Shown here in pieces: positions 1,711 through 20,267 of a stretch of DNA of 42,926 nucleotides. Source of the DNA: an uncultured Clostridium sp. (GTDB lineage Bacteria; Bacillota; Clostridia; TANB77; CAG-508); assembly GCA_947061115.1 (NCBI GenBank), contig CAMSMU010000006.1, positions 1 to 42,926 on the forward strand. The letters run 5' to 3'. Position numbers and translations under genes: made by a program. Below the pieces are notes generated by a model that had not been told where the DNA came from, searched no databases, and saw only the letters and a list, made by a program, of their open reading frames with translations. Every line of letters begins with the position of its first letter. The stretch's first letter is position 1.

Positions 1711-3411
1711 ATGGTAGGAAAGATAAGTACAAAAAAAAGAATGAGAAATGCAATATTTCTTACATTAATAATAATAACAGCATTACTTACAAGGATAGGA
1801 TATATTCAGTTTATAAAAGGAGGAGAACTTAAAGCAAAAGCATATGCACAGCAGACATCAGATAGAACTGTAAGTGCTAAAAGAGGAACAATATATGATA
1901 GCACAGGAAAAACAGTATTAGCAGTTAGCAGTACAGTAGAAACAGTTACAGTAAATCCTACAAATATAAAAGAAGAAAATAAAGAAAAGATCGCAAAAAA
2001 GTTATCAGAATTATTTGAACTTGATTATGAGAAAGTTTTAAAAAGAGTAAAAAAGAGATCATCAATTGAGACAATAGTAAAAAAAGTAGATAAAGAAAAA
2101 ACAAATGAATTAAGAAAGTGGTTACAAGAAAATAATATATCAGAAGGTATAAATATAGATGAAGATACGAAAAGATATTATCCATTAAATAATTTAGCTT
2201 CTCAAATTATAGGTTTTTGCGGTAGTGATAATCAGGGTTTAAATGGGGTAGAGGCAAAATATGATGATTACTTAAAAGGCAAAGCTGGAGCAATAAGCAA
2301 AATAACAGATGCATCAGGTGCTAGCATAAAAGATACATATGAGGAATATACAAATCCAAAAGATGGAGACGATTTAGTATTAACAATAGATAGTACAATA
2401 CAAGGTATAGCAGAAAAATATTTAAAAGAAGCATGTATAGATAATGTATGTACAGATGGTGGAAATATAATAATAATGAGTCCAAAAACAGGTGATATAT
2501 TGGCATTAGCTAGTTATCCAGATTATAATCTAAATGATCCATTTGCAGTAGATGAAAGTTTGCCAAAAGAAGAGCAGACAAAACAAATGCAACAATTATG
2601 GAGAAATAAGGCTATATCAGATACATATGAACCAGGGTCTACATTCAAATTAGTAACAGCGTCAGCATCATTAGAAGAAGGAATAACTACTCCAGATAGA
2701 GCAGGAGAATTTTGTTGCTTTGGATATATAGAAATAGCAGGTGTAAAAATGAAATGTTGGAGACATTATAGGCCACATGGTTCAGAAAGTTTAAGAGATG
2801 CACTAATGAATTCATGTAATCCAGTATTTATAGGATTAGGGCAAAAGCTAGGAGTACATAAATATTATGAATATTTAAATAAATTTGGATTCTTTAAAAT
2901 TACAGGAATAGATATACCAGGAGAAGCAGGCTCTATATTTTTAAAAGAAGAGAAAGTAGGCCCTGTGGAATTAGGAACAATAGCATTTGGGCAGAGGTTT
3001 GAAGTTACACCAATTCAAATGGCAACAATGTTATCAAGTATTGCAAATGGTGGAACATATATAAAACCACGAGTAGTAAAGCAAATTATAAGTAATACAG
3101 AAACAGATGAAGAAGGAAATAAAAAAGTAACTAATATCGAGCCAATAAATGGAGAAAGAGTAATATCTGAAAAAACAGCAAAAGAAGTATTAAGTATGAT
3201 GCAAACGGTTGTAGATGAAGGAACAGGAAAAAATGCAAAAGTTGAAGGATATTCAATAGGAGGAAAAACAGGTACATCAGAAGATGGAGTTAATACAAAT
3301 AAATATGTTACATCGTTTATAGGTACAGCACCAACGGAAGATCCAGAGGTAGTAGTTTTAATAACTCTTTATAATCCAACTGGTGAAGGGGGACACCAAG
3401 GAGGTGAGTGA
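1711..3411 (+). CDS. spoVD: Class B penicillin-binding protein (SpoVD/FtsI type), 5' part interrupted by the 12.1-kb element
   Basis: As it stands 566 residues. There is an N-terminal membrane anchor (about residues 12-33), a PBP dimerisation domain starting with the RGTIYDSTG segment, and a transpeptidase domain with STFK (PGSTFKLV), SCN (MNSCNPVF) and KTG (GGKTGTSED). Known role of the family: septal or spore-cortex peptidoglycan cross-linking. The family's conserved C-terminal segment normally runs GEGGHQGGGVAAPVGGQ and then into the last helix. Here it breaks after GEGGHQGG and hits a stop two codons later. The missing 32 codons are at 15530-15628, so excision of the insert would restore 596 residues. 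The rebuilt protein lacks the PASTA domain of Bacillus SpoVD, so FtsI/PBP2B is an alternative name. The RBS is AGAGGAGG, 8 bases before ATG. Loss of the last helix of the transpeptidase fold probably inactivates the truncated form (inference). Confidence 0.88.
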   Translation: MVGKISTKKRMRNAIFLTLIIITALLTRIGYIQFIKGGELKAKAYAQQTSDRTVSAKRGTIYDSTGKTVLAVSSTVETVTVNPTNIKEENKEKIAKKLSELFELDYEKVLKRVKKRSSIETIVKKVDKEKTNELRKWLQENNISEGINIDEDTKRYYPLNNLASQIIGFCGSDNQGLNGVEAKYDDYLKGKAGAISKITDASGASIKDTYEEYTNPKDGDDLVLTIDSTIQGIAEKYLKEACIDNVCTDGGNIIIMSPKTGDILALASYPDYNLNDPFAVDESLPKEEQTKQMQQLWRNKAISDTYEPGSTFKLVTASASLEEGITTPDRAGEFCCFGYIEIAGVKMKCWRHYRPHGSESLRDALMNSCNPVFIGLGQKLGVHKYYEYLNKFGFFKITGIDIPGEAGSIFLKEEKVGPVELGTIAFGQRFEVTPIQMATMLSSIANGGTYIKPRVVKQIISNTETDEEGNKKVTNIEPINGERVISEKTAKEVLSMMQTVVDEGTGKNAKVEGYSIGGKTGTSEDGVNTNKYVTSFIGTAPTEDPEVVVLITLYNPTGEGGHQGGE

Positions 3412-3432
3412 TTTATTTTGTCACTGTACAAT
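3391..3432 (+). other. attL junction
   Basis: Host PBP sequence up to the GAGGTG core (3401-3406), then element sequence. Eight bases inside the core lies ATTTTGTCACT (3415-3425), the likely integrase half-site, mirrored at the other end of the element at the same distance. Confidence 0.82.
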
Positions 3433-3604: not shown

Positions 3605-5851
3605 ATGAAGAAAGTAAAACCAGAAAAAAAGTTTAAAAGTCAATATAAAACTAATAAAATAAGTTATATATCAATTTTTATTATATTTGTAATAGTAATT
3701 ATTTTATCGTTTTCATATATTATATATATGAAAAATTTGATTTACCAAAATGTATATCAAAATATACAAGAGCTTAGTGAGCAAACAGCAACACAACTTA
3801 ATTTAGCAATTACAGATCAAAAAAATATTATTAATTTAATGGGCGAATATGTAAACAGAGGACATTTTCATAAAGAAGAGGAAATTTTTGATAATTTTAA
3901 GGAAGAACTAGACAATTATCATTTTACTAGATTGGTTATATTAGATAAACAAGGAAATGGTATAACAAGTGATGGCTTTACAGTTAAAAATTATGCTAAT
4001 ATTGAGGAATTTTTTAATCAAGAAGATGTATATTTATCTGAGAATAGACCAAGCACAGTGTCAAATAATCAAGTAAACATATATTCAAAAACTATTACTT
4101 TAAATAATGAAGAAAAAGTATTAATGGCAACAATAAATACTTTTGACTATAAACAGCTTTTATTAAGAAGATTGTTTGGAAAAGGTGGCACATATTTAAT
4201 AAATAATACAGGTAGTGTACTGATCGATTCTTTTGATAATATTAAAGAAAGTAATGCTAATTTATATGATTATATAAAATCAAGATACAATATAACAGAT
4301 GATAAAAATATTCAAAAAATAGACAAAATGGAAGATGATATAAAAAATGGTTTAATAAATACGTTCGATATTGATGCAGATGGTACAACTTATTTTATAC
4401 ATTATGAACAGCTTGAAATTAATAATTGGTATGTTGTAACAACAGCATCTGATAATACAATTGCAAATGAACTTATAAGATTAGTTACAATAACAGCTAC
4501 AATCTGTTTGGGAGTATCTTTTGTAATAATTTCTATTACAATTTATATTAATATTTCAAATCAAAGAAAAAATGAAAAATTATATCATACAGCATATATA
4601 GATCCTGTAACATTACTTGGAAATGAACACTATTTTAGAGAAAATGGCAGGAACTATTTGTTAGAACATAATCAAAATAAAAAGTATATAATAACAGTTG
4701 ATATAAATAAATTTAAAGCATTAAATAATATTCATGGTTATCAATTTTGTAATGAAATTCTAAAATCATTAGGTGAAAAACTAAGATCATTATTACCACA
4801 AGATAATATTACATGTAGGATTTCAAATGATGTTTTTGCCAGTTTATTTAGCTATAAGCAAGATATTAATGAATTACTATATAATATATCAAACAATGCA
4901 TCTAAACTAGATATAAATGGAATTAAAATACAAATTAATTTAGCTATTGGTGCTTGTGAAATTTTACCTAGTAATTTAGACATTAATAAATTATTAGATA
5001 AAGCATATTTTGCACGTTCTAAAATAAAAGGTTTGTATCACAATAATTATTATTTATATGATGAAACATTAGAAAATAAAATGTTAGAAGAACAAGAAAT
5101 AGAATCTACAATGAAAGATGCATTAAAAAATAAAGAATTTGAAATTTTCTATCAACCTAAAATATATGTAGGAAATGAAAAAGTTTATGGAGCAGAAGCA
5201 TTAGTAAGATGGAATAAAAATGGAAATTATATACCACCTAGTAAATTTATTCCATTATTTGAAAAAAATAAATTTATAATGAAATTAGACATATATATAT
5301 TTGAACAAGTTTGTATAGATTTAGCCAATTGGCGAGATAAGTATGGATTTGTACCAAATATTTCAATAAATGTTTCAAAGGAACAGTTTGTAGATGAGAA
5401 TTTTATTAACAAATATGTTGAAATATGTAGCAAATATAATTTAGAACCGAACCAAATTGACTTAGAAATAACAGAAAGTGCGACAATTGATCCTAATATT
5501 GATATATTAACAGTCATGAATAAAATAAAAGAAAGAGGTTTTACTATTTCAATTGACGATTTCGGTACAGGAAATTCCTCTCTTAGTATGTTACAAAATA
5601 TGCCAATTGATATAATTAAGATAGATAAAATATTTGTAGATAAAGCTAATTTGGAAAGTGACGAAAATATTATAAATTATATTATGCTAATGGCAAAACA
5701 TTTAAACACAAAAACGGTTATAGAGGGAGTAGAAACGAAAGATCAGGTACAGTTTATAAGGAAAATAGGTGGAGATATTATACAAGGATATTATTATTCA
5801 AAACCAATATCAAAAGAAGAATTTGAAAAATATTTTAATGAAAACATGTAA
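3605..5851 (+). CDS. Membrane c-di-GMP phosphodiesterase (dCache-like sensor, degenerate GGDEF, EAL)
   Basis: 748 residues. A transmembrane helix (about 20-42) and a second one (about 295-318) flank an extracellular sensor region of Cache type. Next comes a GGDEF-type domain (about 330-480) whose fold motifs are recognisable (DINKFKALNN) but whose active site is RISNDVF instead of RxGGDEF, so it should not make c-di-GMP. The EAL domain (about 500-745) has the catalytic set: AEALVRW, LEITES, DDFGTG, a Lys in IIKIDK, and EGVE. It is therefore predicted to hydrolyse c-di-GMP. It is the first gene of the element and is followed by its own terminator; the downstream genes encode surface adhesion parts, so it may tune attachment. 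That link is inferred from neighbourhood and from known c-di-GMP control of adhesins. Confidence 0.9.
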   Translation: MKKVKPEKKFKSQYKTNKISYISIFIIFVIVIILSFSYIIYMKNLIYQNVYQNIQELSEQTATQLNLAITDQKNIINLMGEYVNRGHFHKEEEIFDNFKEELDNYHFTRLVILDKQGNGITSDGFTVKNYANIEEFFNQEDVYLSENRPSTVSNNQVNIYSKTITLNNEEKVLMATINTFDYKQLLLRRLFGKGGTYLINNTGSVLIDSFDNIKESNANLYDYIKSRYNITDDKNIQKIDKMEDDIKNGLINTFDIDADGTTYFIHYEQLEINNWYVVTTASDNTIANELIRLVTITATICLGVSFVIISITIYINISNQRKNEKLYHTAYIDPVTLLGNEHYFRENGRNYLLEHNQNKKYIITVDINKFKALNNIHGYQFCNEILKSLGEKLRSLLPQDNITCRISNDVFASLFSYKQDINELLYNISNNASKLDINGIKIQINLAIGACEILPSNLDINKLLDKAYFARSKIKGLYHNNYYLYDETLENKMLEEQEIESTMKDALKNKEFEIFYQPKIYVGNEKVYGAEALVRWNKNGNYIPPSKFIPLFEKNKFIMKLDIYIFEQVCIDLANWRDKYGFVPNISINVSKEQFVDENFINKYVEICSKYNLEPNQIDLEITESATIDPNIDILTVMNKIKERGFTISIDDFGTGNSSLSMLQNMPIDIIKIDKIFVDKANLESDENIINYIMLMAKHLNTKTVIEGVETKDQVQFIRKIGGDIIQGYYYSKPISKEEFEKYFNENM

Positions 5852-6201: not shown

Positions 6202-9200
6202 ATGGAAGAAAATATGGAAAATAAAAAAATTAGAGATAAGTTTTTATTAAAAATGATAATTTGTCTTATTTTATTATTAATTGTGTTTTTACTACCAATA
6301 TATTCTAATAGATCTTTAGCAGCAGAGCAAGCAGAAAGTCCAGAATTTGTATATTTATCAGATATAAACTATTCTTCAGCAAAAGTAGGTTGGGGAAAAT
6401 TGCATTTAAATCAGACTGATAGTGGAGCTGCATTTTCTGTAAAAATAGAAGGTGGGGTCTATAGCTTTTCAAAAGGTATTTGGGCACATGCAACTTCTGA
6501 AATAGTATATGATTTAACAAATTATAAAGATTATGATTATTTTACTACATATATGGGAGTAAATACAACATCTGGTAATAATGGTAATGGTGTTAAATTT
6601 TATATATTTACTTCAGTTGATGGAAAACAATGGAACTTAGAAAAAGAATCATCAGTAATTAAATCAGCAAATGACGCAGTGTTTGCTAGAATAGATATAA
6701 GAAATGCAAAATTCTTAAAATTAATAGCAAATGATAATGGATCAAATGGAAATGACCATGCTGTTTATGTAGATCCAAAATTAAGAAAAGAGACATATGA
6801 AGATCCAGGAGAAGATTTAGTTCCTTCAATAGAGATATTAGATCAAAAAATAAAAGGAGAATTCGCAAATGCAGATTTGGTAACTAATAAAGAATATGAA
6901 TTAACACTTCTAAAAAGGGAACTTATTAGCAGAGTAGGAAATTACGCCTTAAAAAAGTTTTTAAGTGCAAGTCAAGAAAATAAAGAAGCATATACTTGGT
7001 TAACAAGTGATGTAGATAATATTAGATTATACATATTAGGTGGAACACCAGAAGGAGGAAGTTATTTTAATTCATTAACACAACTTTCTAGACTTTACAG
7101 TGAATATAAAGATGACTTTACTCTAACAGAAAAGTTGAATAATAAGTGGTATCCAGATTTAACTTATGGAGACTTATATAAAAAGATGGCAATTTCACTT
7201 TCTTTAACACATTCACAAAATGTAGGTTTATGGATGCAATCAGGTGCAGCAGAAAATAAATCAGATGCACTTAGACGTTATGCAATATATAAATATATGC
7301 ATAAAACTGGAAGATTAAGAGCAACTGAAAACTTTGATATTACACCTTGGTTTGAGGCACTACATGTTGAAGAAATGCGTTTTGTTATGAATAACTTAAT
7401 AGATGATGAGGAAATTTTATGGTTAAATTCATATGTTCAAGATAAATTAGATCAATATAAAACAACAAATTATTTAACACCTCATCCATATATAGCTTAT
7501 GTTTGGCCTAATTATGGTAATGGAATTTACTATGATGAAGCAAATAAACAATATTTCAATGAGCTATTTGCTGTAAAAGATAGAGAAAGTGGAGAAGAAA
7601 ATAAAAAAATTGGATTATTTGATTTAACATATACTATACCAGGAGGAAAAAACATACCAAGCTATGAATTATCTGTAACAAGAGGAACTCCACAATACAA
7701 ACTATATAAAGTATGGATGAACTTTAGAAATAAATTTGGAACAGGATGTGTTTGTGGAGGAATTTCAAAAAGTGGTTCAAATATTCGTGCAACTCATGGA
7801 ATACCTGCAACAGTTATAGGTCAACCAGGACATGCAGCACTTTTATGTTACAGCAAAAATAATGATGGAAAAGGTTATTGGGGAATAGACAATGACGTAA
7901 GTGGATGGACATTATCAGAAAAAGGTGAAAGAATGTTATTAGGTTGGGGAAATGCCGCCTATTCTAGAGGATATTCTGTAGTATATATGGTATTAGCTCA
8001 AGAAGCAATAAATGACTTTACAAATTTAGTAAAAAGTGAAGAACAAAGTATGCTTGCAAAAGTATATGCAGGAGATTTAGCAAAACAAGAACAGGCATAT
8101 GAAAAAGCAGTAGAAATACAACCTATAAATATTGATGGTTGGGTTGGCTTAATTAATGTATATAATGCAAATCCAAATAAAACAGAGAATGACTATTATA
8201 ATTTAGCAGAAAGAATAGCAGAAAATTTAAAATGTTTCCCATTACCAATGCAACATTTAACAAATTTAATAAAAACAAGATTAACAAGTGTAGAAAGTAT
8301 ATATAAATTTACACTTTTACAAACAAGAATTTTAGAAGAAGGAAGTAAACTTCCTAATACCGCAACTGATCAAGTACTTCAACCATCAGTTACAAGAACA
8401 GAAGCAAATTATTTATTAGGAAAATTAGACAAAACAATTGCAACATTTTCATTTGATGGTAATGATGCAGGAAAAATTGTATTATCAAACCGCTTTAATG
8501 GAAATGGTGTCCGTTGGGATTATTGCTTAACTGGAAAAGGCGAAAATGAAAATTGGGAAAATGCTGAGTGGCATGAAGTTTCATTTACAGCTGAAGAGGA
8601 ACATAAATTACAATTAACTCAAGAAGAGATAGCAAAAATTACACCAGAGAATGATATATATGTTCATATTGTTGGGGTAAATTATGACGAAGAAAATTTA
8701 TATAAAATTGATATAATAGAACAAGCACTTCCTAATAATTTGTATGCTAATGATTGGGAAAATAAGGTAATTGGAGCTACTGGAGCAATGGAATGGCGTT
8801 ATACAGAAAATGATAATTGGACATCATACAATGTAGCTTATCCAGACTTAACAGGAAATAAAACTGTACAAGTAAGACAATCAGCAACAGGAACAAAAAT
8901 AGCCAGTCCTACATCAGAAATATATAGATTTACCAAAGACAACTGGACAGATACAAGAAAATATATACCAATAGAACATCTATCAATACACAGTTATTCA
9001 ACACAATCAACAGACAACAAGAGACCTTATTATGCACCAAATGCAATTGATGGTAATATTAATACTATGTGGCATACAGACTTTGCACAAAATGTTTTAC
9101 AACAATCAACAAAACCTTTTATTGCTATAGAATTAGACGAACCAAGAAATATATCAGCTTTAGAATTTGTGCAAGGTAAATGGAGAGATAATGATCCAGT

Positions 9201-12200
9201 GTATATTAAAAATGCAATTATATATATAAGTAATGATGGAGAAACTTGGATAGAGGTAGGAAGAACAGAAAATTGTGAACAAAATTTAGAATTCAAGTCA
9301 GTTGAATTTGATGAAAGTATTTATGGAAAATATATAAAATTTGAAATGGATACATACAATATGTTTTCATCTTTAGCAATGGTAAATTTATATGAAGACA
9401 AAACAAAATTAACAATAGCAAATTTCTCATTTAATGGCGAAGATGCTGGAAAAATAGTTTTATTAGATGAATTTAAGGGGTCAAATTGGGAATATAGCAT
9501 AGATGGTGGAAGAACATGGAAAAAAGGAAAAAATAATTCTCATGAATTAACACAAATAGAATTACAACAAATAAATTCTAATGATAACATAAAAGTACGT
9601 TTAAATGGAAAAGAATCTACTATTATAATTAAAGAACAAGATATTCCTAATATTTCAGCATATTTAAATGACTTAGAAAACAGACTAATAGGTATAAGTA
9701 ATGCAGAAAATCTTGAATGGAAAATAGAAGGAAATAGTAATTGGATTTCTTATTCAGAAAAAGAACCAATAGTATTAGGAAATAAAAAACTTTTCATTAG
9801 AAAAAAGGCAGCAGGTACATTAATGGCAAGTGATGCAGTAGAATTTCAATTCACAGAAGATAACCAACCAGATACAGCAAAATATGTACCAATAAAACAT
9901 TTATCAATAGAAAGTTTTTCAAGTACAACGCCAAATAGAGGGGAACCAGCAACAAATGCTATAGATGGACTTCCTAGCACAATGTGGCACACAAATCGTA
10001 CTACTACAACAATGAAAGATCCAAGATGGATCGTAATAGAATTAGATGAACCAAGGTATATATCAAAAATTGAATATGTAAGAAAAGAAGCATATGCATA
10101 TGGAATATTAAAAAATGGAAAAGTATCTGTAAGTATGGATGGGGAAAATTGGGAAGTAGCACATAATATTAAAAATCTATATAACCCAACAACAGTAACA
10201 GAACTTACAACAAGCGAAAGTAGTAAAGACATTATATTTGCAGAATCTAAACAAGCAAAATACATAAAAATAGAATGTACAGAATCTTGTGACTATGTTT
10301 ATGGAAACAGAGATGGAGTCCCAATGGACTATTTCTTCTCAGCAACAATGTTTAATGTATTTGAAGATATAACAAAAGCAGAATATCCAACAGCAGAAGT
10401 TGAATATAGTACAACAAAATTAACAAATCAAAATGTAATAGCTACTTTAGTGAATGAAAATATGGACATTAGAGTAACAAACAATAACGGAAGTAAAACA
10501 TATACATTCACTGAAAATGGAACATTCACATTTGAATTTGTAAATAGCAAAGGTATAAAAGGAACAGCAACAGCAGTGGTAAACAATATTGATAAAACAA
10601 TGCCGAATGCTAAGATAGAATATAGTACAACAGAACCAACAAATAGATCAGTAACAGCAACAATAGTATTTGATAAAGAAAATGTAAGGATAATAAACAA
10701 CGAAGGAAATAATACATATACATTTACAGAGAATGGTACATTTGAATTTGAATTCATAGGACCAGCAGGAAACACAGGAAAAGCAACAGCTAAAGTGAAT
10801 TGGATAGATAAAGTTGCACCAGTAGCAACTATAACATATAGTGCAGAATATAAAACAAACCAAGATATAGTAGCTACTATCTCATTTAATGAAAAAGATG
10901 TTACAATAACAAATAATGGAGGAAAAAATACATATACATTTACTAATAATGGAACATTTACATTCAATTTCACAGATAAAGCAGGAAACGTAGGAACAGC
11001 AACAGCAGTAGTTGAAAACATAGATAAAACTTTACCAAAAGCAACTATAATCTATGATATAAATAAATTAACAAATCAAAATGTAATAGCAACAATAACA
11101 TTCGATAAAGAAAATGTTACAATAACAAATAATAATGGAAGTGATACATATACATTTATAGAAAATGATACATTTACATTTGAATTTGTAGGACCTGCAG
11201 GAAATGCAGGAATAGCAGTAGCAGAAGTAAACTGGATAGACAAAAAAGCTCCAGTTGCAACAATAACATATGATATAGATAACAAGTTAACTAATCAAGA
11301 TGTAACAGCTACAATAACTTTCAATGAAGAAGATGTAACAATAACAAATAATAAAGGAAGTAATACTTATACATTTGTACAAAATGGAGAATTTACATTT
11401 GAATTCAAAGACAAAGCTGGAAATATAGGAAAAGCGACAGCTAATGTTGAATGGATAGATAAAATACAAATAGTACCAACAATCACATATAGTATAAACA
11501 ATATAACAAATCAAGATGTAATAGCAACAATAACTTTTGATAAAGCAGGTGTAAAAGTAGTAGACGACAATGGTAAAGAAATTGAAAATGGAGAAACATA
11601 TGTATTTACAGAAAATGGAACACATGAATTCAAATATAGAGGGCCAGCAGGAAATACAGGAACAGCTATTGCAGAAGTAACTTGGATAGATAAAACACCA
11701 CCAGCAGCAATTATTACATATGATATAGTAGAACCAACTAATAAAAATGTAACAGCAACAGTAAAATTTGACGAAGGTGGAGTAAAAATAGTAAATGACA
11801 AGGGAGAAGAGATTAAAAATGGAGATACATATGTATTTAAACAAAATGGAAGATATACATTTAATTATGTAGGCCCATTAGGAAATAAAGGAAAAGCAAT
11901 AGCAGTAGTTAATTGGATAGATAAAACAGCTCCAACAGCACAAATTAAGTACAGTACTACAGAGTTAACAAATAAGGATGTAACAGTAACATTAGTAAAT
12001 GCAAGTGAAGAAATAAAAATTACAAACAATAATGGAAGTAATATGTATACATTTAAAGAAAATGGAAAATTCACATTTGAATTTGAAGACAAAGTAGGAA
12101 ATAAAGGAACAGCTACAGCAACAGTAGAAAACATAGATAAAAAATTACCAAAAGCAACAATTATATACAGTACAACAGAACCAACAAGTGGAGAAGTAAC

Positions 12201-12579
12201 AGCAACAATAACATTTGATAAAAATGATGTTACTGTAGAAGGTGGAAATACACATACATTTAAAGAAAATGGAGAATTTATATTTAAATTTAGAGATAAA
12301 GCTGGAAATAGTGGAAATATAACAGCGAAAGTAGATTGGATAAAAAAAGAACAAGAAATTCCAGATAAAAATAAAACAGGAGATATTAACAACGATGGCA
12401 AAATAACAGCTACAGACCTTATATTATTAAAAAGACATTTAGTAGCAGGACAAAAACAAGAATGGATATTGGAAAAAGAAAAATTTGAGGCAGGAGACAT
12501 TAATAACGATGGCAAAATAACAGCTACAGACTTAATATTAATGAAAAGGCTAGTATTGAGCCAAATAAAAGTCCAATAA
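6202..12579 (+). CDS. Giant secreted dockerin-bearing surface protein (NPCBM, transglutaminase-like, two discoidin domains, nine Ig-like repeats, dockerin)
   Basis: 2125 residues. A signal peptide (hydrophobic core about 17-36, cleavage near SLAAEQ) is followed by an NPCBM-type carbohydrate-binding module (about 50-195). A transglutaminase-like/papain-like region comes next, with candidate Cys in GTGCVCGG (about 514), His in GQPGHAALL (about 540) and Asp in WGIDNDVSGW (about 562). Two copies of a composite unit follow, each a module with a F-SF-G-DAGKIVL motif followed by a discoidin/F5-8C domain (NAIDGNINTMWHTDF; NAIDGLPSTMWHTN). Nine Ig-like repeats of about 72 residues run from 1395 to 2050. 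A C-terminal type I dockerin (2059-2125) has two calcium loops, both GDINNDGKITATDL. Dockerins bind cohesins, and the next gene encodes one. Predicted role: a cell-surface, glycan-binding, possibly proteolytic or cross-linking protein held on the wall through cohesin. The start is the ATG 8 bases after AAAGGA; ATG at 6214 is also possible. Confidence 0.9.
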   Translation: MEENMENKKIRDKFLLKMIICLILLLIVFLLPIYSNRSLAAEQAESPEFVYLSDINYSSAKVGWGKLHLNQTDSGAAFSVKIEGGVYSFSKGIWAHATSEIVYDLTNYKDYDYFTTYMGVNTTSGNNGNGVKFYIFTSVDGKQWNLEKESSVIKSANDAVFARIDIRNAKFLKLIANDNGSNGNDHAVYVDPKLRKETYEDPGEDLVPSIEILDQKIKGEFANADLVTNKEYELTLLKRELISRVGNYALKKFLSASQENKEAYTWLTSDVDNIRLYILGGTPEGGSYFNSLTQLSRLYSEYKDDFTLTEKLNNKWYPDLTYGDLYKKMAISLSLTHSQNVGLWMQSGAAENKSDALRRYAIYKYMHKTGRLRATENFDITPWFEALHVEEMRFVMNNLIDDEEILWLNSYVQDKLDQYKTTNYLTPHPYIAYVWPNYGNGIYYDEANKQYFNELFAVKDRESGEENKKIGLFDLTYTIPGGKNIPSYELSVTRGTPQYKLYKVWMNFRNKFGTGCVCGGISKSGSNIRATHGIPATVIGQPGHAALLCYSKNNDGKGYWGIDNDVSGWTLSEKGERMLLGWGNAAYSRGYSVVYMVLAQEAINDFTNLVKSEEQSMLAKVYAGDLAKQEQAYEKAVEIQPINIDGWVGLINVYNANPNKTENDYYNLAERIAENLKCFPLPMQHLTNLIKTRLTSVESIYKFTLLQTRILEEGSKLPNTATDQVLQPSVTRTEANYLLGKLDKTIATFSFDGNDAGKIVLSNRFNGNGVRWDYCLTGKGENENWENAEWHEVSFTAEEEHKLQLTQEEIAKITPENDIYVHIVGVNYDEENLYKIDIIEQALPNNLYANDWENKVIGATGAMEWRYTENDNWTSYNVAYPDLTGNKTVQVRQSATGTKIASPTSEIYRFTKDNWTDTRKYIPIEHLSIHSYSTQSTDNKRPYYAPNAIDGNINTMWHTDFAQNVLQQSTKPFIAIELDEPRNISALEFVQGKWRDNDPVYIKNAIIYISNDGETWIEVGRTENCEQNLEFKSVEFDESIYGKYIKFEMDTYNMFSSLAMVNLYEDKTKLTIANFSFNGEDAGKIVLLDEFKGSNWEYSIDGGRTWKKGKNNSHELTQIELQQINSNDNIKVRLNGKESTIIIKEQDIPNISAYLNDLENRLIGISNAENLEWKIEGNSNWISYSEKEPIVLGNKKLFIRKKAAGTLMASDAVEFQFTEDNQPDTAKYVPIKHLSIESFSSTTPNRGEPATNAIDGLPSTMWHTNRTTTTMKDPRWIVIELDEPRYISKIEYVRKEAYAYGILKNGKVSVSMDGENWEVAHNIKNLYNPTTVTELTTSESSKDIIFAESKQAKYIKIECTESCDYVYGNRDGVPMDYFFSATMFNVFEDITKAEYPTAEVEYSTTKLTNQNVIATLVNENMDIRVTNNNGSKTYTFTENGTFTFEFVNSKGIKGTATAVVNNIDKTMPNAKIEYSTTEPTNRSVTATIVFDKENVRIINNEGNNTYTFTENGTFEFEFIGPAGNTGKATAKVNWIDKVAPVATITYSAEYKTNQDIVATISFNEKDVTITNNGGKNTYTFTNNGTFTFNFTDKAGNVGTATAVVENIDKTLPKATIIYDINKLTNQNVIATITFDKENVTITNNNGSDTYTFIENDTFTFEFVGPAGNAGIAVAEVNWIDKKAPVATITYDIDNKLTNQDVTATITFNEEDVTITNNKGSNTYTFVQNGEFTFEFKDKAGNIGKATANVEWIDKIQIVPTITYSINNITNQDVIATITFDKAGVKVVDDNGKEIENGETYVFTENGTHEFKYRGPAGNTGTAIAEVTWIDKTPPAAIITYDIVEPTNKNVTATVKFDEGGVKIVNDKGEEIKNGDTYVFKQNGRYTFNYVGPLGNKGKAIAVVNWIDKTAPTAQIKYSTTELTNKDVTVTLVNASEEIKITNNNGSNMYTFKENGKFTFEFEDKVGNKGTATATVENIDKKLPKATIIYSTTEPTSGEVTATITFDKNDVTVEGGNTHTFKENGEFIFKFRDKAGNSGNITAKVDWIKKEQEIPDKNKTGDINNDGKITATDLILLKRHLVAGQKQEWILEKEKFEAGDINNDGKITATDLILMKRLVLSQIKVQ
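10384..12342 (+). repeat. Nine tandem Ig-like repeat units in the coding sequence
   Basis: Units start near 10384, 10603, 10819, 11035, 11250, 11473, 11698, 11932 and 12148, about 216-234 bp each. Each encodes a version of ATITYS..-TNQDV-ATITF, then NTYTF-ENG-FTFEF, and ends in a WIDK or NIDK linker. Units are similar but not identical, so they are old duplications that could still recombine. Confidence 0.85.
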
Positions 12580-12615
12580 AATTAGTATTAAAAAATGTGA
12601 TAAGGAGTAAAGAAA

Positions 12616-13371
12616 ATGAAAAGCAAATTAATGAGTAAAAAAATAATTAATCTAATTATAATAACAATATTACTATTAACTACAAAAGTATTTGCTGCAA
12701 ATGATAAATTTGGCACAACATTAAGTGTAAATAATCTTCAAGTAAAAAGAGAAAATAATGTTATAATTACAATAGGAATAAAAGACATTGATATTGAAAG
12801 TGGAGAAGAAGGCATAGCAGGTTATACAGCTACAGTAAAATTTGATCCAACTGTTTTAGAATATGTATCAACAGATGGTACAGATAAATGGGAAGCTCCA
12901 TTTTACCAAGGTGGATTAATTACAGGTAATACAGGAGATGGAGAAGTTATAAAAACTACACAAAATATAGGAACTATTACCTTTAAAGTGAAGAAAGATG
13001 CAAAATTAGGAAAAACTAAAATTGAATTAACTAACTTTTCAGGTTCAACAGTAGAAAATGATGTTTATGCTAATAGAGATGAATCAGTTGAAATAACAAT
13101 AGTAGATAGTAACAACAATAACGGTGGAAATAACGATAGCAACAATAATAATAACAATAATGGAAACAACAATAACAATAGTAATAATAATGGCAATAAC
13201 AACAATAATAGTAATAATAACACAAATAAAGTTGGCGGTAGCATTACAGAAATCGATGAAGCTACTGATGGAAAAATACCACAAACAGGAGAAGGAAACA
13301 TCATATTAATAGCATGTATAGGAGTAGCTATAATATGTTCAGTAATTTCATATATAAAGATGAATAAATAG
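12616..13371 (+). CDS. Cell-wall-anchored cohesin protein
   Basis: 251 residues: a signal peptide (about 1-28, cleavage near VFAAN), one cohesin domain (about 30-165; GIAGYTATVKFDPTVLEYV is the typical cohesin strand pair), an Asn/Ser/Gly linker of about 40 residues, then IPQTGE, a hydrophobic helix and a short Lys tail. The last three form a sortase sorting signal with Ile in place of the usual Leu. It lies 36 bases after the dockerin gene with an AAGGAG RBS, so the two are probably one operon and the products a matching pair: the cohesin is fixed on peptidoglycan and captures the giant dockerin protein. The pairing is inferred from adjacency. No sortase gene lies in the window. Confidence 0.88.
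   Translation: MKSKLMSKKIINLIIITILLLTTKVFAANDKFGTTLSVNNLQVKRENNVIITIGIKDIDIESGEEGIAGYTATVKFDPTVLEYVSTDGTDKWEAPFYQGGLITGNTGDGEVIKTTQNIGTITFKVKKDAKLGKTKIELTNFSGSTVENDVYANRDESVEITIVDSNNNNGGNNDSNNNNNNNGNNNNNSNNNGNNNNNSNNNTNKVGGSITEIDEATDGKIPQTGEGNIILIACIGVAIICSVISYIKMNK
13108..13230 (+). repeat. AAT/AAC low-complexity tract encoding the Asn-rich linker
   Basis: Simple-sequence stretch of AAC and AAT codons with interspersed GGN and AGT. Such tracts are prone to slippage in multiples of three, which would change linker length. Confidence 0.75.
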
Positions 13372-13627: not shown

Positions 13628-13786
13628 TTGCAAGAAAATTATAGAATCGAAAAACATATGTTAAATAAAGAAAAAATACACGAATTAAAAGTTGGAAATA
13701 TAAATATAGAAATGTGTTATTCAAAAAATAATAAGAAAATCTATGAGTGTATGCTAAATGTTTTGAATGATAAAGTAAGAAAGTAG
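13628..13786 (+). CDS. 52-residue small protein next to the recombinase
   Basis: A TTG start with a good GAGGTGA RBS 8 bases upstream. The product is 52 residues, charged, with the central stretch KVGNINIEMCYSKNNKKIYE. It ends 25 bases before the recombinase start, so the two are probably co-transcribed. Small proteins at this position in clostridial serine-recombinase elements include TnpW-like proteins and recombination directionality factors. The KVGNxxIEMxYS segment is loosely like the IGNTTYxVxxxF segment of TnpW-type proteins. I do not recognise it firmly. A directionality factor would be required for excision, which makes it the best candidate in the element. Confidence 0.6.
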   Translation: MQENYRIEKHMLNKEKIHELKVGNINIEMCYSKNNKKIYECMLNVLNDKVRK

Positions 13787-13811: not shown

Positions 13812-15495
13812 TTGACAGCTGGAAGAAAATCGAAAAATGTATTGGGTAATTTAAATACAAATAAAAAGATATGGTCTGTTGCGATATATATAAGGCTTTC
13901 ACAAGAAGACAATAATAATGGCGAAGAAAAAAGTGAAAGCAATAGTATAACAAGCCAAAGGGCGCTATTAAATGAATTCGCCAATACACATAATGATTTA
14001 ATTGTTTATGATACTTATGTTGATGATGGATACACAGGAACAGATTTTAATAGACCTGGATTTCAAAAATTATTAGAAGATATGAGAAAAGGAAATGTAA
14101 ATTGTGTTCTAGTAAAAGATTTATCAAGGCTTGGAAGAAACTATATAGAAGTAGGAAATTATATAGAGCAAATATTTCCACTATTTAATATCAGATTTAT
14201 TGCTGTAAATGATAATGTAGATAGCTTTAAAAATCCTGCAAGTACAAATACAATATTAGTACCATTTAAAAACTTAATAAATGATGAATATGCAAGAGAT
14301 ACATCAATAAAGATAAGGTCAGCTTTAAATGGAAGAAAAAAGAAGCGGGGAGTTTGTAGGATCATTTACAGCGTATGGATATATAAAAGATCCCAAAGAC
14401 AAGCACAAGTTAATTATTGATGAAGAATCAGCTAAAATTGTAAGAAACATTTTTAATTGGAAAGTGAATGAGGGTTTAGGAAATTTAAGTATATGTCATA
14501 GACTAAATGATATGGGAATTTTAAATCCTACAGGCTATAAAAAGAAAAAATTAAATCAGAATTACAATAATTTTTCAATAATACAGGAAGACTATTCATG
14601 GAGTCCTTCAACTGTTAGAAATATATTAAAAAATGATATATATATAGGAAATATTACACAAGGAAAAAGGAGAGTCAAAAGTTATAAACTACATAAGATA
14701 GAACAAGTACCAGAAGATGAATGGATTACAGTAGAAAATATGCATGAAGCTATTATAGATAAAGAAATATTTGTAAAGGCACAAGAATTAAGAAAAATTG
14801 ATACAAGAGTAGAAAACACAGGTAAATTAAGCATGTGGGCAGGAGTATTAAAATGTGCAGACTGCAAACGAGCAATGCACAAAAAATACTGTAAAAACAA
14901 GAGTGGTACTGTTTATGAATACTACATATGTGGTACATATAGAAAGAAATCAAATAAACTATGTACAAAACATACTGTAAAAGTAGAAGAATTAGAAAAG
15001 GCAGTATTGGAAGCTATAAAACTACATATAGAATTATTTATTAATATAGAAAAATTATTAAAACAATTTGAAAATACAGGGGATTATAGAAACAATCATT
15101 GGTCTATAGGTGCTCGTACATTTGAAATAAAAAACATAAAACAAAGTAAAGAAAAAGAAATAGAAAAATTAAATAATTTAAAAAGGTACTTATACGAAGA
15201 TTGGAAAAATAAATATATAACAAAAGAAGAGTATTTAGAATATAAGCAGAAATATGAACAAGATATAAGAAAAATAGAGGAGAGTATTATAAACTTAAAT
15301 GAGCATAAAGAGAAACAAGAAGAAAAAATAAGCCAAAATAGCTTATGGATAGAAAACTTTAAATTACATAAAAATATAACAGAACTCGATAGAGATATTA
15401 TAACTGAATTAATAGATTATATAGAAGTTCATGAGAATAAAAAGATAACAATTCATTTTAAATTTATGAATGAATTAGATTTAATAAATAGTTAA
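13812..15495 (+). pseudogene. Large serine recombinase of the element, split by a one-base frameshift
   Basis: TTG start 6 bases after AGGAGG. The first frame (13812 to 14420) holds the catalytic resolvase domain: AIYIRLSQED with the nucleophile Ser, YVDDGYTGTDFNRPGFQ and the LSRLGRNYIE helix. The second frame (14329-15495, +1 relative to the first) holds the recombinase domain (GEFVGSFTAYGYIKDP), a zinc ribbon (CADCKRAMHKKYC and a later pair of Cys around YICGTYRKKSNKLC) and a coiled coil rich in Lys/Glu. Removing one base within about 14336-14350 (an A6 and a G4 run) joins NGRK to RSGEFVGS and gives one protein of about 560 residues, normal for TnpX/skin-type integrases. The gene sits 33 bases from the right core. 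Its expected job is integration into, and with a helper excision from, the PBP gene. Natural decay, programmed frameshifting and sequencing error remain open. Confidence 0.88.
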
Positions 15496-15500
15496 TAATT

Positions 15501-15545
15501 AATTTTGTAGCGACAAAATTAAACAATGAGGTGGTGTTGCAGCAC
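15501..15545 (+). other. attR junction
   Basis: Element sequence up to the GAGGTG core (15528-15533), then PBP sequence. A palindrome AATTTTGT-AGCG-ACAAAATT lies at 15501-15520. Within it, the reverse complement of 15509-15519 reads ATTTTGTCGCT, matching the attL half-site in 10 of 11 positions at the same 8-base distance from the core. Confidence 0.82.
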
Positions 15546-15628
15546 CAGTAGGAGGTCAAATATTTAATGAAATATTGCCTTATTTAGAAATAGAAAATAA
15601 AGCTAATATAGAAAAAAAGGAAGAGTAA
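15530..15628 (+). pseudogene. spoVD: 3' tail of the interrupted PBP gene
   Basis: 32 codons plus TAA, with no start codon or RBS of their own. The product begins GGVAAPVGGQIFNEILPYLE, exactly the segment expected after GEGGHQGG in class B PBPs, followed by a short charged tail. The reading phase relative to the GAGGTG core is the same as in the 5' part (GGT at 3403 and at 15530), so a crossover anywhere in the core restores the frame. It is untranslated as it stands. Confidence 0.9.
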
Positions 15629-15734: not shown

Positions 15735-16727
15735 ATGATAAAAATAGCTTTTTTTGCAACAAAAGAATATGATAAAAAAATATTCAATAAATACAATAAA
15801 GAATATAAATACGAAATAACATATTTTGATTCAAACTTAAACAAAGAAACAGCCCCACTTGCAAAAGGGTATGATGTTATATGTATATTTGTAAATGATA
15901 TAGTAGATAAAGAAACAATAGAAATATTAAAAGAAAATGGAGTAAAATTAATAGCATTACGTTGCGCAGGATTTAATAATGTTGCACTTAATAGCTTAAA
16001 TGGTGATATAAAAGTAGTTAGAGTACCATCATATTCTCCACATGCAGTAGCAGAACATGCAACAGCATTATTGTTAGAAATAAATAGAAAAATATATAAA
16101 GCATATCAAAGAACAAAAAAATATAATTTTACTTTAGATGGGTTATTAGGATTTGATATATATGGTAAAACAGTAGGAGTAGTAGGGACAGGAAAAATAG
16201 GAAAAGAATTTTGCAAAATAATGAAAGGATTTGGAGCAAATATTATAGCATATGATGTATATCATGATGACGAAGCAGCAAAAGAAATTGGTTTCAAATA
16301 TGTAGAACTAGATGAATTATTATCAAAATCAGATATAATTTCTATACATTGCCCATTAACAAAGGAAAATGAGAAACTAATAAATAGCACTACAATAGAA
16401 AAAATGAAAAATGGAGTTATAATTATAAACACAAGTAGAGGAAAATTAATAGATAGTAATAGCTTAATAGAAGAATTAGAAAAAGGAAAAATTGGCGGAG
16501 TAGGATTAGACGTATTTGATGAAGAAAGTGAATTCTTCTTAAATGATATGTCAAGAGAATATAAAAGAAATAGAAATTTATCAGTACTTTTATCAATGCC
16601 AAATGTTATAATAACATCACATCAAGCATTTTTTACAAGAGAAGCATTAAATAAAATAGCACAAGACACATGTGAAAATATAAAGGAATATTTTGAGACA
16701 GGAACATGTGTTAATGAGGTAAAATAG
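15735..16727 (+). CDS. ldhA: D-lactate dehydrogenase (D-2-hydroxyacid dehydrogenase family)
   Basis: 330 residues, the usual length. NAD-dependent reduction of pyruvate to D-lactate in the cytoplasm. The Rossmann loop is VGVVGTGKIGKEF; the substrate-binding and catalytic set is visible as LRCAGFNNVAL, INTSRGKLID (catalytic Arg), GLDVFDEE (Glu) and SHQAFFTREAL (His). The last form, with SHQAF and FT, is typical of LdhA rather than phosphoglycerate or hydroxypyruvate enzymes. The RBS is GGGAGG. It stands alone with its own promoter and a hairpin just after it, so it is probably a fermentation gene. It follows the restored end of the PBP gene by about 100 bases. No Rex-type operator was recognised upstream. 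Confidence 0.9.
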   Translation: MIKIAFFATKEYDKKIFNKYNKEYKYEITYFDSNLNKETAPLAKGYDVICIFVNDIVDKETIEILKENGVKLIALRCAGFNNVALNSLNGDIKVVRVPSYSPHAVAEHATALLLEINRKIYKAYQRTKKYNFTLDGLLGFDIYGKTVGVVGTGKIGKEFCKIMKGFGANIIAYDVYHDDEAAKEIGFKYVELDELLSKSDIISIHCPLTKENEKLINSTTIEKMKNGVIIINTSRGKLIDSNSLIEELEKGKIGGVGLDVFDEESEFFLNDMSREYKRNRNLSVLLSMPNVIITSHQAFFTREALNKIAQDTCENIKEYFETGTCVNEVK

Positions 16728-16755
16728 GAGAGTAACATACCCTCCTATTTATATT
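16722..16755 (+). terminator. Hairpin after ldhA
   Basis: Stem AAATAGGAG (16722-16730) with CTCCTATTT (16742-16750). The T run is poor, so this is a weak terminator. Confidence 0.55.
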
Positions 16756-16827
16756 GTATTAGTTTTAAAATATGTAAACTTCATTATAAGAAAAAATAGT
16801 TGTAGATATTCAAGAATATTAAAAATA

Positions 16828-16856
16828 TTGATAAATAAAGACGATTATGATATAAT
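16828..16856 (+). promoter_or_regulatory. Promoter of the GT8 gene
   Basis: TTGATA (16828-16833) and TATAAT (16851-16856), spacer 17. Confidence 0.6.
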
Positions 16857-16876
16857 TAATAATGGAGGGATTAGAA

Positions 16877-17641
16877 ATGATCATAGGAATGAGTTGTGCT
16901 AGAGATTGGTACCAATATTTATTGACTAATTTATTTGCTATATTATCTAATAATAAAGTAGAAAAAGCCTATCTTTTTATAGATGATGATTATATAGAGG
17001 GTTTAAATTTATTGAAAGAAAAATTTCAAACAGAGTTTATATGCAAAAACATTAATGATACTTTTAATAAATATATTAGAAATGATAGCCCAAATGCAAA
17101 TACACGTTATACAAAATGTTCAATGTGTAGACTATATTTTTCTAAAGAAATAAATGAAGAAAAAATATTATATATAGATGTTGATGCATTAGTTGTTTCA
17201 AATATAGATGAATTGTGGAACATTAATTTAGAAGAATATTATGTTGCTGGAACAACAGATACAGGAATGATGAGGGATGGAGTAGTTTATTTAAAATTTA
17301 TTGATTCTAATGTTCCATATATTAATTCAGGAGTTTTATTAATGAATTTAGATCTTATCAGAAAAGAAAAAATAGATGATAAGTGGCTAAATCTTATTAA
17401 TAATGAGAGATTTATGTATCCAGATCAAGACGCTATTAATATAGCGTGTAAAGAACATATATATCTTTTTTCAGTGGAATTTAACTCTTCTACAAGTACA
17501 AGCTTATTAGAAAACAAAAAAGACATAAAAATAATGCATTATACTATGAAAAAAACAAATTGGGTTAGCCAACACAAATATTCTGAACTTTGGTATGATT
17601 ATGAAAAGTTATATGAAGAATTTAGAGCAAAGAATAAGTAA
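16877..17641 (+). CDS. Family 8 glycosyltransferase
   Basis: 254 residues from the ATG at 16877, chosen because GGAGGG (16864-16869) sits 7 bases upstream. The in-frame ATG at 16862 overlaps that RBS. GT8 features: N-terminal IGMSCARDWYQYLLTNLFAI, the metal-binding DxD motif (YIDVDALVV), PYINSGVLLMNLDLIR, YPDQDAIN and a C-terminal IMHYTMKKTNW with the conserved His. Such enzymes are retaining transferases that move galactose or glucose from UDP-sugars, typically onto lipopolysaccharide-like or wall glycans. No membrane segment. It has its own promoter. The neighbouring GT4 gene suggests a role in a surface glycan or glycolipid; the acceptor is unknown. Confidence 0.85.
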   Translation: MIIGMSCARDWYQYLLTNLFAILSNNKVEKAYLFIDDDYIEGLNLLKEKFQTEFICKNINDTFNKYIRNDSPNANTRYTKCSMCRLYFSKEINEEKILYIDVDALVVSNIDELWNINLEEYYVAGTTDTGMMRDGVVYLKFIDSNVPYINSGVLLMNLDLIRKEKIDDKWLNLINNERFMYPDQDAINIACKEHIYLFSVEFNSSTSTSLLENKKDIKIMHYTMKKTNWVSQHKYSELWYDYEKLYEEFRAKNK

Positions 17642-17686
17642 AATAATTGCAAATCTTAAATTAATATTAAGATGAATATAGTATTA

Positions 17687-17715
17687 TTGAAAAAAATGTA
17701 AAAATATAGTATAAT
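17687..17715 (+). promoter_or_regulatory. Promoter of the GT4 gene
   Basis: TTGAAA (17687-17692) and TATAAT (17710-17715), spacer 17. Confidence 0.6.
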
Positions 17716-17752
17716 TATATTTAAATGAATTTTAAGAAGGGAAGTTTACTAT

Positions 17753-18928
17753 ATGAAAGTAACGTTTTACTCTATTTTTTTGACACACCATCAAGTACCA
17801 TTTTGTTTAGAAATGCAAAAAAGATTAGGAGATGACTTTAAATTTGTGTCAACTACAAAGATATTTAAGTGGCGTTTAGATATGGGATTTAAAGATTTAG
17901 ATCAAGAATATGATTTTGTGATTAAGGCATATGAGAGCGATAAAGAATATGAAAAAGCTAAAAAATTAGCATTAGATAGTGATATTGTTATAATAGGATC
18001 AACAACTGATGATTTAATAGAAGAAAGACTAAAACAAGATAAAATAACATTTAGATATAGATCAAGAATTTTCTTGTTTTTAGATGGAGTTATAAAAACA
18101 ATATTCAATAAAGAAAAAATAAATTTACTTTATACAAGGCATATAAAATATAGAAAAAATAAAAATCTATATTTATTATGTGCTAGTGCTTATGGAGCAA
18201 ATGATTTTAATATGTTGGGTTTATATAAAAATAAGATATATAAATGGGGATATTTTTTAGACACAAAAAAATATAATATAGATGAGTTAATAGATAAGAA
18301 AGAGAAAAATGGGAAAATAAAAATAGTATGGGTTGCTAGATTAATAAATTGGAAACATCCTGAAATACCTATAAGACTTGCTAAAAATTTAAAAAAAGAA
18401 AATATAAATTTTAGTATAAAAATGTTAGGTGTAGGAAAATTAGAAAGTAAGCTTAAAGATGAAATAAAAAGAGAAGGATTAGAAGATGTAGTAGAACTTA
18501 TTGGACAAGTACCTAGTAATGAAGTTGCATCTTACTATGAAGAGGCGAATATATTCATTGGAACGAGTGATAGTAGAGAAGGATGGGGAGCTGTTGTTAA
18601 TGAAGCAATGAATGGTGGATGTGCAATTATTGCAAATCAAAAAATGGGTTCGGTACCATTTTTAATAAAACATAAAGAAAATGGACTAATGTATAACACA
18701 TATAGTGAATTAGAAAGAGAAGTTAAAGAAGTAATAAACAACAAGGAACTAAGAAGAAAATTAGGCAAAAATGCCTATAAAACAATTACAGAAGAATGGA
18801 CAAGTGATGTAGCAACAAAGAACTTATTAGATTTATTTGAGTTAGTAGTAAAAAACAAATCAAATGAATTTAAACTACAAGAAGGTCCAGCAAGTATAGC
18901 AAAAAATTATAAAAAAATAAAAATATAA
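17753..18928 (+). CDS. Family 4 glycosyltransferase
   Basis: 391 residues, GT-B fold. The nucleotide-sugar-binding C-terminal half is clear: IVWVARLINWKHPE, VELIGQVPSNEVASYYEEAN, then the EX7E-type region SREGWGAVVNEAMNGGCAII and the VPFLIKHKENGLMY loop. The N-terminal acceptor half starts VTFYSIFLTHHQVPFCLEMQ. It transfers a sugar from a nucleotide donor to a surface glycan or lipid; neither can be named. It has its own promoter and a downstream terminator and so is a single transcription unit beside GT8. The very C-terminus (from about residue 370) is a Lys-rich tail without recognisable domain. Confidence 0.85.
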   Translation: MKVTFYSIFLTHHQVPFCLEMQKRLGDDFKFVSTTKIFKWRLDMGFKDLDQEYDFVIKAYESDKEYEKAKKLALDSDIVIIGSTTDDLIEERLKQDKITFRYRSRIFLFLDGVIKTIFNKEKINLLYTRHIKYRKNKNLYLLCASAYGANDFNMLGLYKNKIYKWGYFLDTKKYNIDELIDKKEKNGKIKIVWVARLINWKHPEIPIRLAKNLKKENINFSIKMLGVGKLESKLKDEIKREGLEDVVELIGQVPSNEVASYYEEANIFIGTSDSREGWGAVVNEAMNGGCAIIANQKMGSVPFLIKHKENGLMYNTYSELEREVKEVINNKELRRKLGKNAYKTITEEWTSDVATKNLLDLFELVVKNKSNEFKLQEGPASIAKNYKKIKI

Positions 18929-18932
18929 GAAT

Positions 18933-18978
18933 AAATAAAGTATGTTAAAGTTAACTTAATGTACTTTATTTTTACTTT
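18933..18978 (+). terminator. Terminator after the GT4 gene
   Basis: Outer stem AAATAAAGTA (18933-18942) with TACTTTATTT (18962-18971), an inner GTTAA/TTAAC helix, and T-rich sequence after it. Confidence 0.75.
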
Positions 18979-19033
18979 TTTTATAGTATAATTGATATAA
19001 GTAAGAATAAAAATTTTATAAAAGGAGTAAAAA

Positions 19034-20074: not shown

Positions 20075-20097
20075 TAAAATTAAAGATAATAAAAAAG

Positions 20098-20125
20098 TGT
20101 AGAGGCGACTATTAGTCGTCTTTTA
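20098..20125 (+). terminator. Hairpin terminator, copy 1 of a dispersed GGCGACT repeat
   Basis: AGGCGACT (20103-20110), ATT loop, AGTCGTCT (20114-20121), then TTTAT. The stem is much more GC-rich than its surroundings and nearly identical to a hairpin at 39461-39479 after guaA. Confidence 0.7.
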
Positions 20126-20267
20126 TAATAGAAAAATAATTGAATAAGAGAAAATTATATGCAAAAAAAACTGTAAAAATTTGTTAAAAATACTTGCAAA
20201 ATGTAAAAAAATATATTATTATAGTGCTTATGGAAAATGTTGGAAGATAGCAAAGGAAGAGAAGATT

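What the first reader, a model, noticed from the sequence alone, without database searches (positions are those of the whole stretch)
6202..13371. A mobile, self-contained cohesin-dockerin surface display pair
The 2125-residue dockerin protein and the 251-residue cohesin protein with IPQTGE anchor are adjacent and inside the element. Together they would display a giant glycan-binding protein on the wall without covalent anchoring of the large partner. Cohesin-dockerin pairs are known from cellulosomes; finding one as cargo of a gene-intervening element, with no glycoside hydrolase, looks new.
Basis: partly seen in the sequence, partly recalled or inferred. Interest (0 to 1): 0.75.

Follow-up and report, generated by a model that had tools for sequence, protein, structure and literature searches.

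The report
Cell-wall docking pair on spoVD element
A gut bacterium carries, on a DNA element that splits its sporulation gene spoVD, two adjacent genes for a giant secreted sugar-binding, probably enzymatic protein and the wall-anchored socket it plugs into; the socket-and-plug design is known from cellulosomes, but its recurrent carriage by gene-splitting elements appears undescribed.

Summary
Window 6202-13371 encodes a 2125-aa secreted protein ending in a type I dockerin and, 36 nt downstream, a 251-aa cohesin with an IPQTGE sorting signal. Both lie in a 12.1-kb serine-recombinase element inserted precisely in spoVD; joining the flanks restores the reading frame seen in intact relatives. 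Across 36 related loci, dockerin and neighbouring cohesin change class together (partial rank correlation 0.71) independently of the rest of the large protein, so they are very probably cognate. The interpretation needs three corrections. (1) The large protein is not only glycan-binding: it holds an uncharacterised domain with an invariant Cys-His-Asp/Asn set, transglutaminase-like. (2) The pair is recurrent cargo of spoVD elements (about 14 loci), but also sits beside intact spoVD or at unrelated chromosomal sites without a recombinase, and the host has a second cohesin of the same class. (3) Wall-anchored single cohesins holding dockerin-bearing binding proteins are already known (ScaE/CttA). 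Unexpectedly, the apparently broken recombinase carries a one-base shift conserved in 20 elements at an invariant, very rare CGG codon, which looks like programmed +1 frameshifting. Binding, display and excision were not tested.

The parts
1711..3411 (+). 5' part of spoVD (class B PBP), truncated by the element
   Evidence: best NCBIfam model spoVD_pbp E 7.6e-159, below its equivalog cut-off; intact relatives L204 and L063 continue GHQGGGVAAP
3397..3406 (+). attL core CAAGGAGGTG
   Evidence: same core at the spoVD junction of the other elements
3416..3428 (+). left terminal inverted-repeat arm TTTTGTCACTGTA
   Evidence: pairs imperfectly with TGTAGCGACAAAA at 15506-15518; the same arms occur in related elements
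3605..5851 (+). GGDEF/EAL protein, 748 aa, further cargo
   Evidence: Pfam; no match to it in the other pair-carrying loci examined
6202..12579 (+). 2125-aa secreted protein: signal sequence, NPCBM/CBM51 (50-194), transglutaminase-like region (about 195-610; C518, H544, D563/N564), TPR-like helices, two F5/8C (CBM32-like) domains, Ig-like repeats (about 1420-2055), type I dockerin 2060-2118
12616..13371 (+). 251-aa cohesin (about 30-165), Asn-rich linker, IPQTGE sorting signal, C-terminal hydrophobic stretch
13628..13786 (+). 52-residue ORF (from a TTG) conserved just upstream of the recombinase; candidate directionality factor (inference)
   Evidence: 41 upstream matches in about 40 of 49 related loci, some weak; no Pfam match
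13812..14420 (+). serine recombinase, N-terminal catalytic domain (zero frame)
   Evidence: PF00239 E 8e-20; phrog_95 integrase
14329..15495 (+). serine recombinase, C-terminal part in the +1 frame; conserved shift at AAG-CGG near 14345
   Evidence: PF07508, PF13408 and PF14287; shift conserved in 20 loci
15506..15533 (+). attR: inverted-repeat arm TGTAGCGACAAAA (15506-15518) and core CAATGAGGTG (15524-15533)
15530..15628 (+). 3' end of spoVD (GGVAAPVGGQIFNEILPYLEIENKANIEKKEE, stop)
   Evidence: same C-terminus in intact relatives

Best explanation
The two genes form a display operon. The 251-aa cohesin is secreted and fixed to peptidoglycan by a host sortase through IPQTG. The 2125-aa protein is secreted and held on the cell non-covalently when its C-terminal dockerin plugs into that cohesin. 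The Ig-like repeats act as a stalk, presenting CBM51 and CBM32-like sugar-binding domains and a transglutaminase-like cysteine domain that probably acts on glycoprotein or cell-wall peptide substrates. The operon is one of several alternative cargoes of a family of integrative elements that insert in spoVD using a large serine recombinase; precise excision would restore spoVD. Shown by sequence: domains, sorting signal, element ends, restored frame, recurrence, co-variation of dockerin and cohesin. Inferred: binding, surface location, enzymatic activity, and excision during sporulation.
For: Domain matches above cut-off and a cohesin fold; the closest solved dockerins are type I cellulosomal. 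Partial rank correlation of dockerin with neighbouring cohesin given the core domain is 0.71 (36 loci; none of 2000 permutations above 0.34), while core versus cohesin is 0.16. The co-variation includes loci where the cohesin gene lies upstream of the large gene, away from its dockerin end (L066, L152). Most aligned cohesin partners keep an LPxTG/LPxAG-like signal; four sortases in the genome. C518, H544, Q541 and the D563-N564 region are invariant or nearly so in 58 homologues; Cys at a helix start, His at a strand start and Asp-Asn at a strand end in a pLDDT 92 model; hhalign to a transglutaminase set aligns Cys to Cys and GIPA to GIPA. att sites and frame. Pair plus recombinase at spoVD in other genera: L059, L061, L180, L183, L184, L187. 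SpoIVA in 32 of 38 relatives. The closest homologue (84%) is in another genus whose SpoVD is 69% identical, whereas same-genus homologues are 47-50% with SpoVD 78-79%, which points to horizontal transfer.
Against: No binding, secretion or excision data. The hhalign probability for the transglutaminase match is only 25%, no Pfam model covers the domain, and the structure searches covered only its CBM51 part. The dockerin end and the cohesin gene are adjacent in many loci, so linkage explains part of their co-variation. No SpoIVA was found in this 76%-complete genome. The attR core has one mismatch. Truncated SpoVD keeps nearly all of its transpeptidase domain and might work without excision.
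Confidence: 0.74

Rival explanations
1. The pair is an ordinary chromosomal display operon of this family that now and then lies near spoVD; its place inside the element is incidental and it does not move with it.
For: Relatives without a recombinase beside intact spoVD (L062, L063, L204) and between housekeeping genes (L057, L060); the core domain occurs in 100 of 292 family genomes.
Against: At least 13 further loci combine pair and recombinase, several with both spoVD ends in view, in several genera; the closest homologue is in another genus. Copies beside intact spoVD are also explained as element remnants.
Confidence: 0.2
2. The dockerin protein docks mainly on a host cohesin (the orphan on contig C29), and the element's own cohesin is redundant.
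For: The C29 cohesin is 61% identical and scores 164 bits with the cohesin profile built from these partners.
Against: The co-varying partner is the neighbouring cohesin, which alone has the sortase signal; the C29 protein has only a C-terminal hydrophobic stretch.
Confidence: 0.15
3. The recombinase is dead because of its frameshift, so the element and its pair are fixed.
For: The window reads two overlapping ORFs.
Against: The same one-base shift at the same CGG codon occurs in 20 of 46 related recombinases from separate assemblies, with both halves conserved.
Confidence: 0.1

Closest known systems
Ruminococcus flavefaciens ScaE with CttA or ScaB (PMC2930009)
   Same: A single cohesin with a C-terminal LPXTG anchor holds dockerin-bearing proteins, including the carbohydrate-binding CttA; this species also has dockerin proteins annotated transglutaminase-like.
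   Different: Part of a large cellulosome in the sca cluster; the source read does not describe carriage on an integrative element.
Limousia mucinolysome, cSca5 (PMC12997984)
   Same: Gut bacterium; an LPxTG-anchored cohesin is predicted to hold dockerin scaffoldins.
   Different: Many cohesins and many dockerin glycoside hydrolases; here one cohesin and one dockerin protein without a glycoside hydrolase.
Clostridium perfringens cohesin/dockerin glycoside hydrolases
   Same: Non-cellulosomal; their cohesins are among the closest solved folds (2jh2, 2vo8) and CBM51 is the closest fold to the N-terminal domain.
   Different: There the dockerin proteins are glycoside hydrolases (PMC12997984); not element cargo as far as was read.
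Gene-intervening elements of spore formers: skin (sigK), gin (gerE), SP-beta (spsM), yin (yabG)
   Same: Insertion in a sporulation gene, serine recombinase, short direct-repeat core, excision restores the gene.
   Different: Target is spoVD; short phage-free element with interchangeable cargo; excision during sporulation not shown; recombinase often needs a frameshift.

Membership tests
Cohesin (PF00963) | Profile match above the curated cut-off and cohesin fold | tested here: met
   34.5 bits vs 24.1; top PDB folds are cohesins, TMt up to 0.82
Type I dockerin (PF00404) | Duplicated Ca-binding loop-helix motif above cut-off | tested here: met
   52.8 bits vs 22.9; DINNDGKITATDL twice; closest solved dockerins are type I
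Cohesin-dockerin cognate pair | The two modules bind each other | not testable with these tools
   Only indirect: dockerin and cohesin co-vary given the core domain
Cellulosome | Multi-cohesin scaffoldin with dockerin-bearing glycoside hydrolases | tested here: not met
   Single cohesin, no glycoside hydrolase in the pair. Whole genome (76% complete): two cohesin and four dockerin matches; the other dockerin genes read as an amidase, an SH3 protein and an adhesin-like protein
Sortase substrate | LPxTG-like motif, hydrophobic stretch, basic tail, sortase in host | tested here: met
   IPQTGE plus tail; partners have LPxTG/LPxAG; four sortases. Anchoring itself untested
Sporulation gene-intervening element | Serine-recombinase element splitting a sporulation gene, with att cores that rejoin the frame | tested here: met
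Sporulation gene-intervening element | Excision during sporulation in the mother cell | not testable with these tools
   No reads or culture; SpoIVA in 32 of 38 relatives
Transglutaminase-like superfamily | Papain-like core with Cys-His-Asp/Asn triad | tested here: inconclusive
   Invariant residues in suitable secondary structure; hhalign probability 25%; no Pfam match
Programmed +1 frameshift gene | Conserved shift site with both frames conserved | tested here: met
   20 recombinases with CGG at the same codon; 26 unshifted relatives have none there
Programmed +1 frameshift gene | Full-length fusion product made | not testable with these tools
   Needs expression or peptide data

The most novel reading that the evidence does not exclude
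A family of spoVD-splitting elements swaps cargo, including a matched dockerin/wall-cohesin display kit, and controls its recombinase by programmed +1 frameshifting at an almost unused CGG codon (37 of 180,404 codons) for which no tRNA with anticodon CCG was found. Integration or excision, and hence spore-cortex formation and surface coat, would then depend on a translation event sensitive to tRNA supply.
Probability: 0.5. Interest if true: 0.78.

Novelty: new variant of a known kind. Interest (0 to 1): 0.6.

Why it matters
It shows cohesin-dockerin display being carried between genera as a matched plug and socket, outside cellulosomes, by elements that split a sporulation gene. That links surface coat, horizontal transfer and sporulation in uncultivated gut bacteria, offers new orthogonal binding pairs, and points to a bacterial recombinase that seems to rely on a programmed +1 frameshift, a device a review reports at the same codon type in glass-sponge mitochondria.

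Tried and rejected
Broken recombinase: rejected because the shift is conserved. Separate translation of the C-terminal half from its ATG: not excluded, but less likely because 2 of 20 members lack that ATG while all keep the CGG. Canonical -1 slippage at A-AAA-AAG: the -1 frame ends within a few codons. Cellulosome: not met. Phage origin of the cargo: PHROGs has no match for either protein of the pair. Known family for the core domain: none in Pfam, NCBIfam or by PDB sequence beyond CBM51 and weak TPR; Foldseek and VIA-align rows were filled by CBM51, so they say nothing about the core. Literature: no paper found for spoVD intervening elements, for cohesin-dockerin pairs as element cargo, or for frameshifting serine recombinases, in an open-access library only.

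Full report
What is there. Window 6202-12579 encodes a 2125-residue protein with a signal sequence, an NPCBM/CBM51 domain, a roughly 400-residue region without a Pfam family, two F5/8 type C domains, Ig-like repeats and a C-terminal Dockerin_1 domain of 52.8 bits. After 36 bases comes a 251-residue protein with a cohesin domain, an Asn-rich linker, IPQTGE and a hydrophobic C-terminus. AlphaFold gives the cohesin high confidence, and its best PDB matches are cohesins, including the non-cellulosomal C. perfringens ones. Four sortases are encoded in the genome.

The element. The pair lies in a 12.1-kb insertion in a spoVD-like gene (best NCBIfam model spoVD_pbp, though below its equivalog cut-off). 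The 5' part ends ...GHQGG and the 3' part resumes GGVAAPVGG...; intact relatives read GHQGGGVAAPVGG. The core CAAGGAGGTG and the inverted end TGTAGCGACAAAA (or a close variant) recur at this place in dozens of relatives in many genera, with a related serine recombinase, but with varying cargo: a decarboxylase, GNAT enzymes, a glycosyltransferase, a GH10-like protein, dockerin proteins and others. A 52-residue protein just upstream of the recombinase is conserved in about 40 of 49 loci, weakly in some, and may be the directionality factor (inference). SpoIVA in 32 of 38 relatives indicates a spore-forming lineage. This fits the known class of sporulation gene-intervening elements (PMC5595907, PMC4191935, PMC5025042, PMC10747680), with spoVD as target.

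Is the pair cognate? Among 36 non-redundant loci, dockerin identity tracks neighbouring cohesin identity (rank correlation 0.72; 0.71 after removing core-domain identity; highest of 2000 permutations 0.34), whereas core identity hardly tracks the cohesin (0.16). For example, L066 has a 79% identical core but a 37% identical dockerin and a 28% identical cohesin; L146 has a 56% core but a 71% dockerin and a 57% cohesin. Linkage contributes where the genes abut, but the match persists where the cohesin gene is upstream (L066, L152). This supports pairing and is not a binding test.

Is the pair mobile? Fourteen loci, the window included, combine pair and recombinase; not all show both spoVD ends, because contigs end. 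Nine lie beside an intact or rejoined spoVD without a recombinase, and roughly twenty elsewhere. Two of the latter are placed among housekeeping genes: L057 before fabH-D-G-F and L060 between pheT and ribosomal protein genes. The closest homologue (84% core, 61% cohesin) is in another genus whose SpoVD is 69% identical, while same-genus homologues have 47-50% cores and 78-79% SpoVD. Horizontal transfer is therefore likely, and the element is one carrier, not the only home.

What the large protein does. In 58 homologues C518, H544 and Q541 are invariant and D563-N564 nearly so. In a pLDDT 92 model the Cys starts a helix, the His starts a strand and the Asp-Asn ends one, the order of a transglutaminase or papain-like core. 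Profile comparison with a transglutaminase set aligns VCGGISKSGSNIRATHGIPATVIG with VCEEYASLFVALCRASNIPARVIT, in register but with a probability of only 25%. I infer a cysteine enzyme acting on protein or peptide near sugars bound by CBM51 and the CBM32-like domains. R. flavefaciens has dockerin proteins annotated transglutaminase-like (PMC2930009).

An unexpected result. The recombinase is split into two overlapping frames. The same one-base shift occurs in 20 of 46 related recombinases and is absent in 26. In all 20 the zero-frame codon at the joint is CGG, the inserted C standing before a GGA or GGG codon of the +1 frame (GEFVG/GEFIG); none of the 26 has a CGG in this stretch. CGG makes up 37 of 180,404 codons in the loci examined (the ORF set includes some spurious frames). 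In two relatives with this recombinase, G004 and G142, the Arg tRNAs found have anticodons TCT, CCT and ACG, never CCG, though the tRNA sets recovered (29 and 24) are incomplete. The tree needs about five changes, compatible with one gain and several losses, with many weak branches. A review reports +1 frameshifting at rare UGG/CGG codons before GGA in glass-sponge mitochondria (PMC5009743). I take this as a probable programmed +1 frameshift; no product has been seen.

Known or new. A wall-anchored single cohesin holding a dockerin-bearing binding protein works like ScaE/CttA and resembles cSca5 of the mucinolysome. The modules are members of known families. What appears new is their recurrent carriage by spoVD-splitting elements, the conserved enzyme-like core, and the frameshifting recombinase. 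The literature check covers an open-access library only.

Noticed in passing
window 13812-15495, shift near 14345: Serine recombinase in two overlapping frames; the same one-base shift at an invariant CGG codon in 20 related elements: probable programmed +1 frameshift.
   Followed up: yes
window 13628-13786: 52-residue ORF conserved upstream of the recombinase in most related elements; candidate recombination directionality factor.
   Followed up: partly
G000 contig C29, L202 9856-10842: Orphan cohesin, 61% identical to the element's, with a C-terminal hydrophobic stretch but no LPxTG; no dockerin gene nearby.
   Followed up: partly
L212 4208-6884, L213 5808-9424, L211 2669-7308: Three other host dockerin proteins (amidase, SH3 protein, adhesin-like), each followed by a membrane-anchored beta-rich protein; only the L211 one scores weakly as a cohesin. 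Possibly diverged plug-and-socket pairs.
   Followed up: partly
L105 37-14187: Two related recombinases flank one dockerin/cohesin pair: possible tandem elements at spoVD.
   Followed up: no
L091 14217-15206, L153 16727-17716; window 15735-16727: A 2-hydroxyacid dehydrogenase about 70% identical to the one just outside the element lies next to related large dockerin proteins in other genomes.
   Followed up: no
window 15735-21569: About 6 kb between the spoVD 3' end and murE (dehydrogenase, two glycosyltransferases, YdcF-like protein, AgrC-like kinase), a place where many relatives have spoVD close to murE.
   Followed up: no
L106, L110, L121-L124, L131: Large proteins with the same core (57-68% identical) on contigs labelled Bacilli, Tenericutes or Erysipelotrichaceae: wide transfer or mislabelled MAGs.
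   Followed up: no
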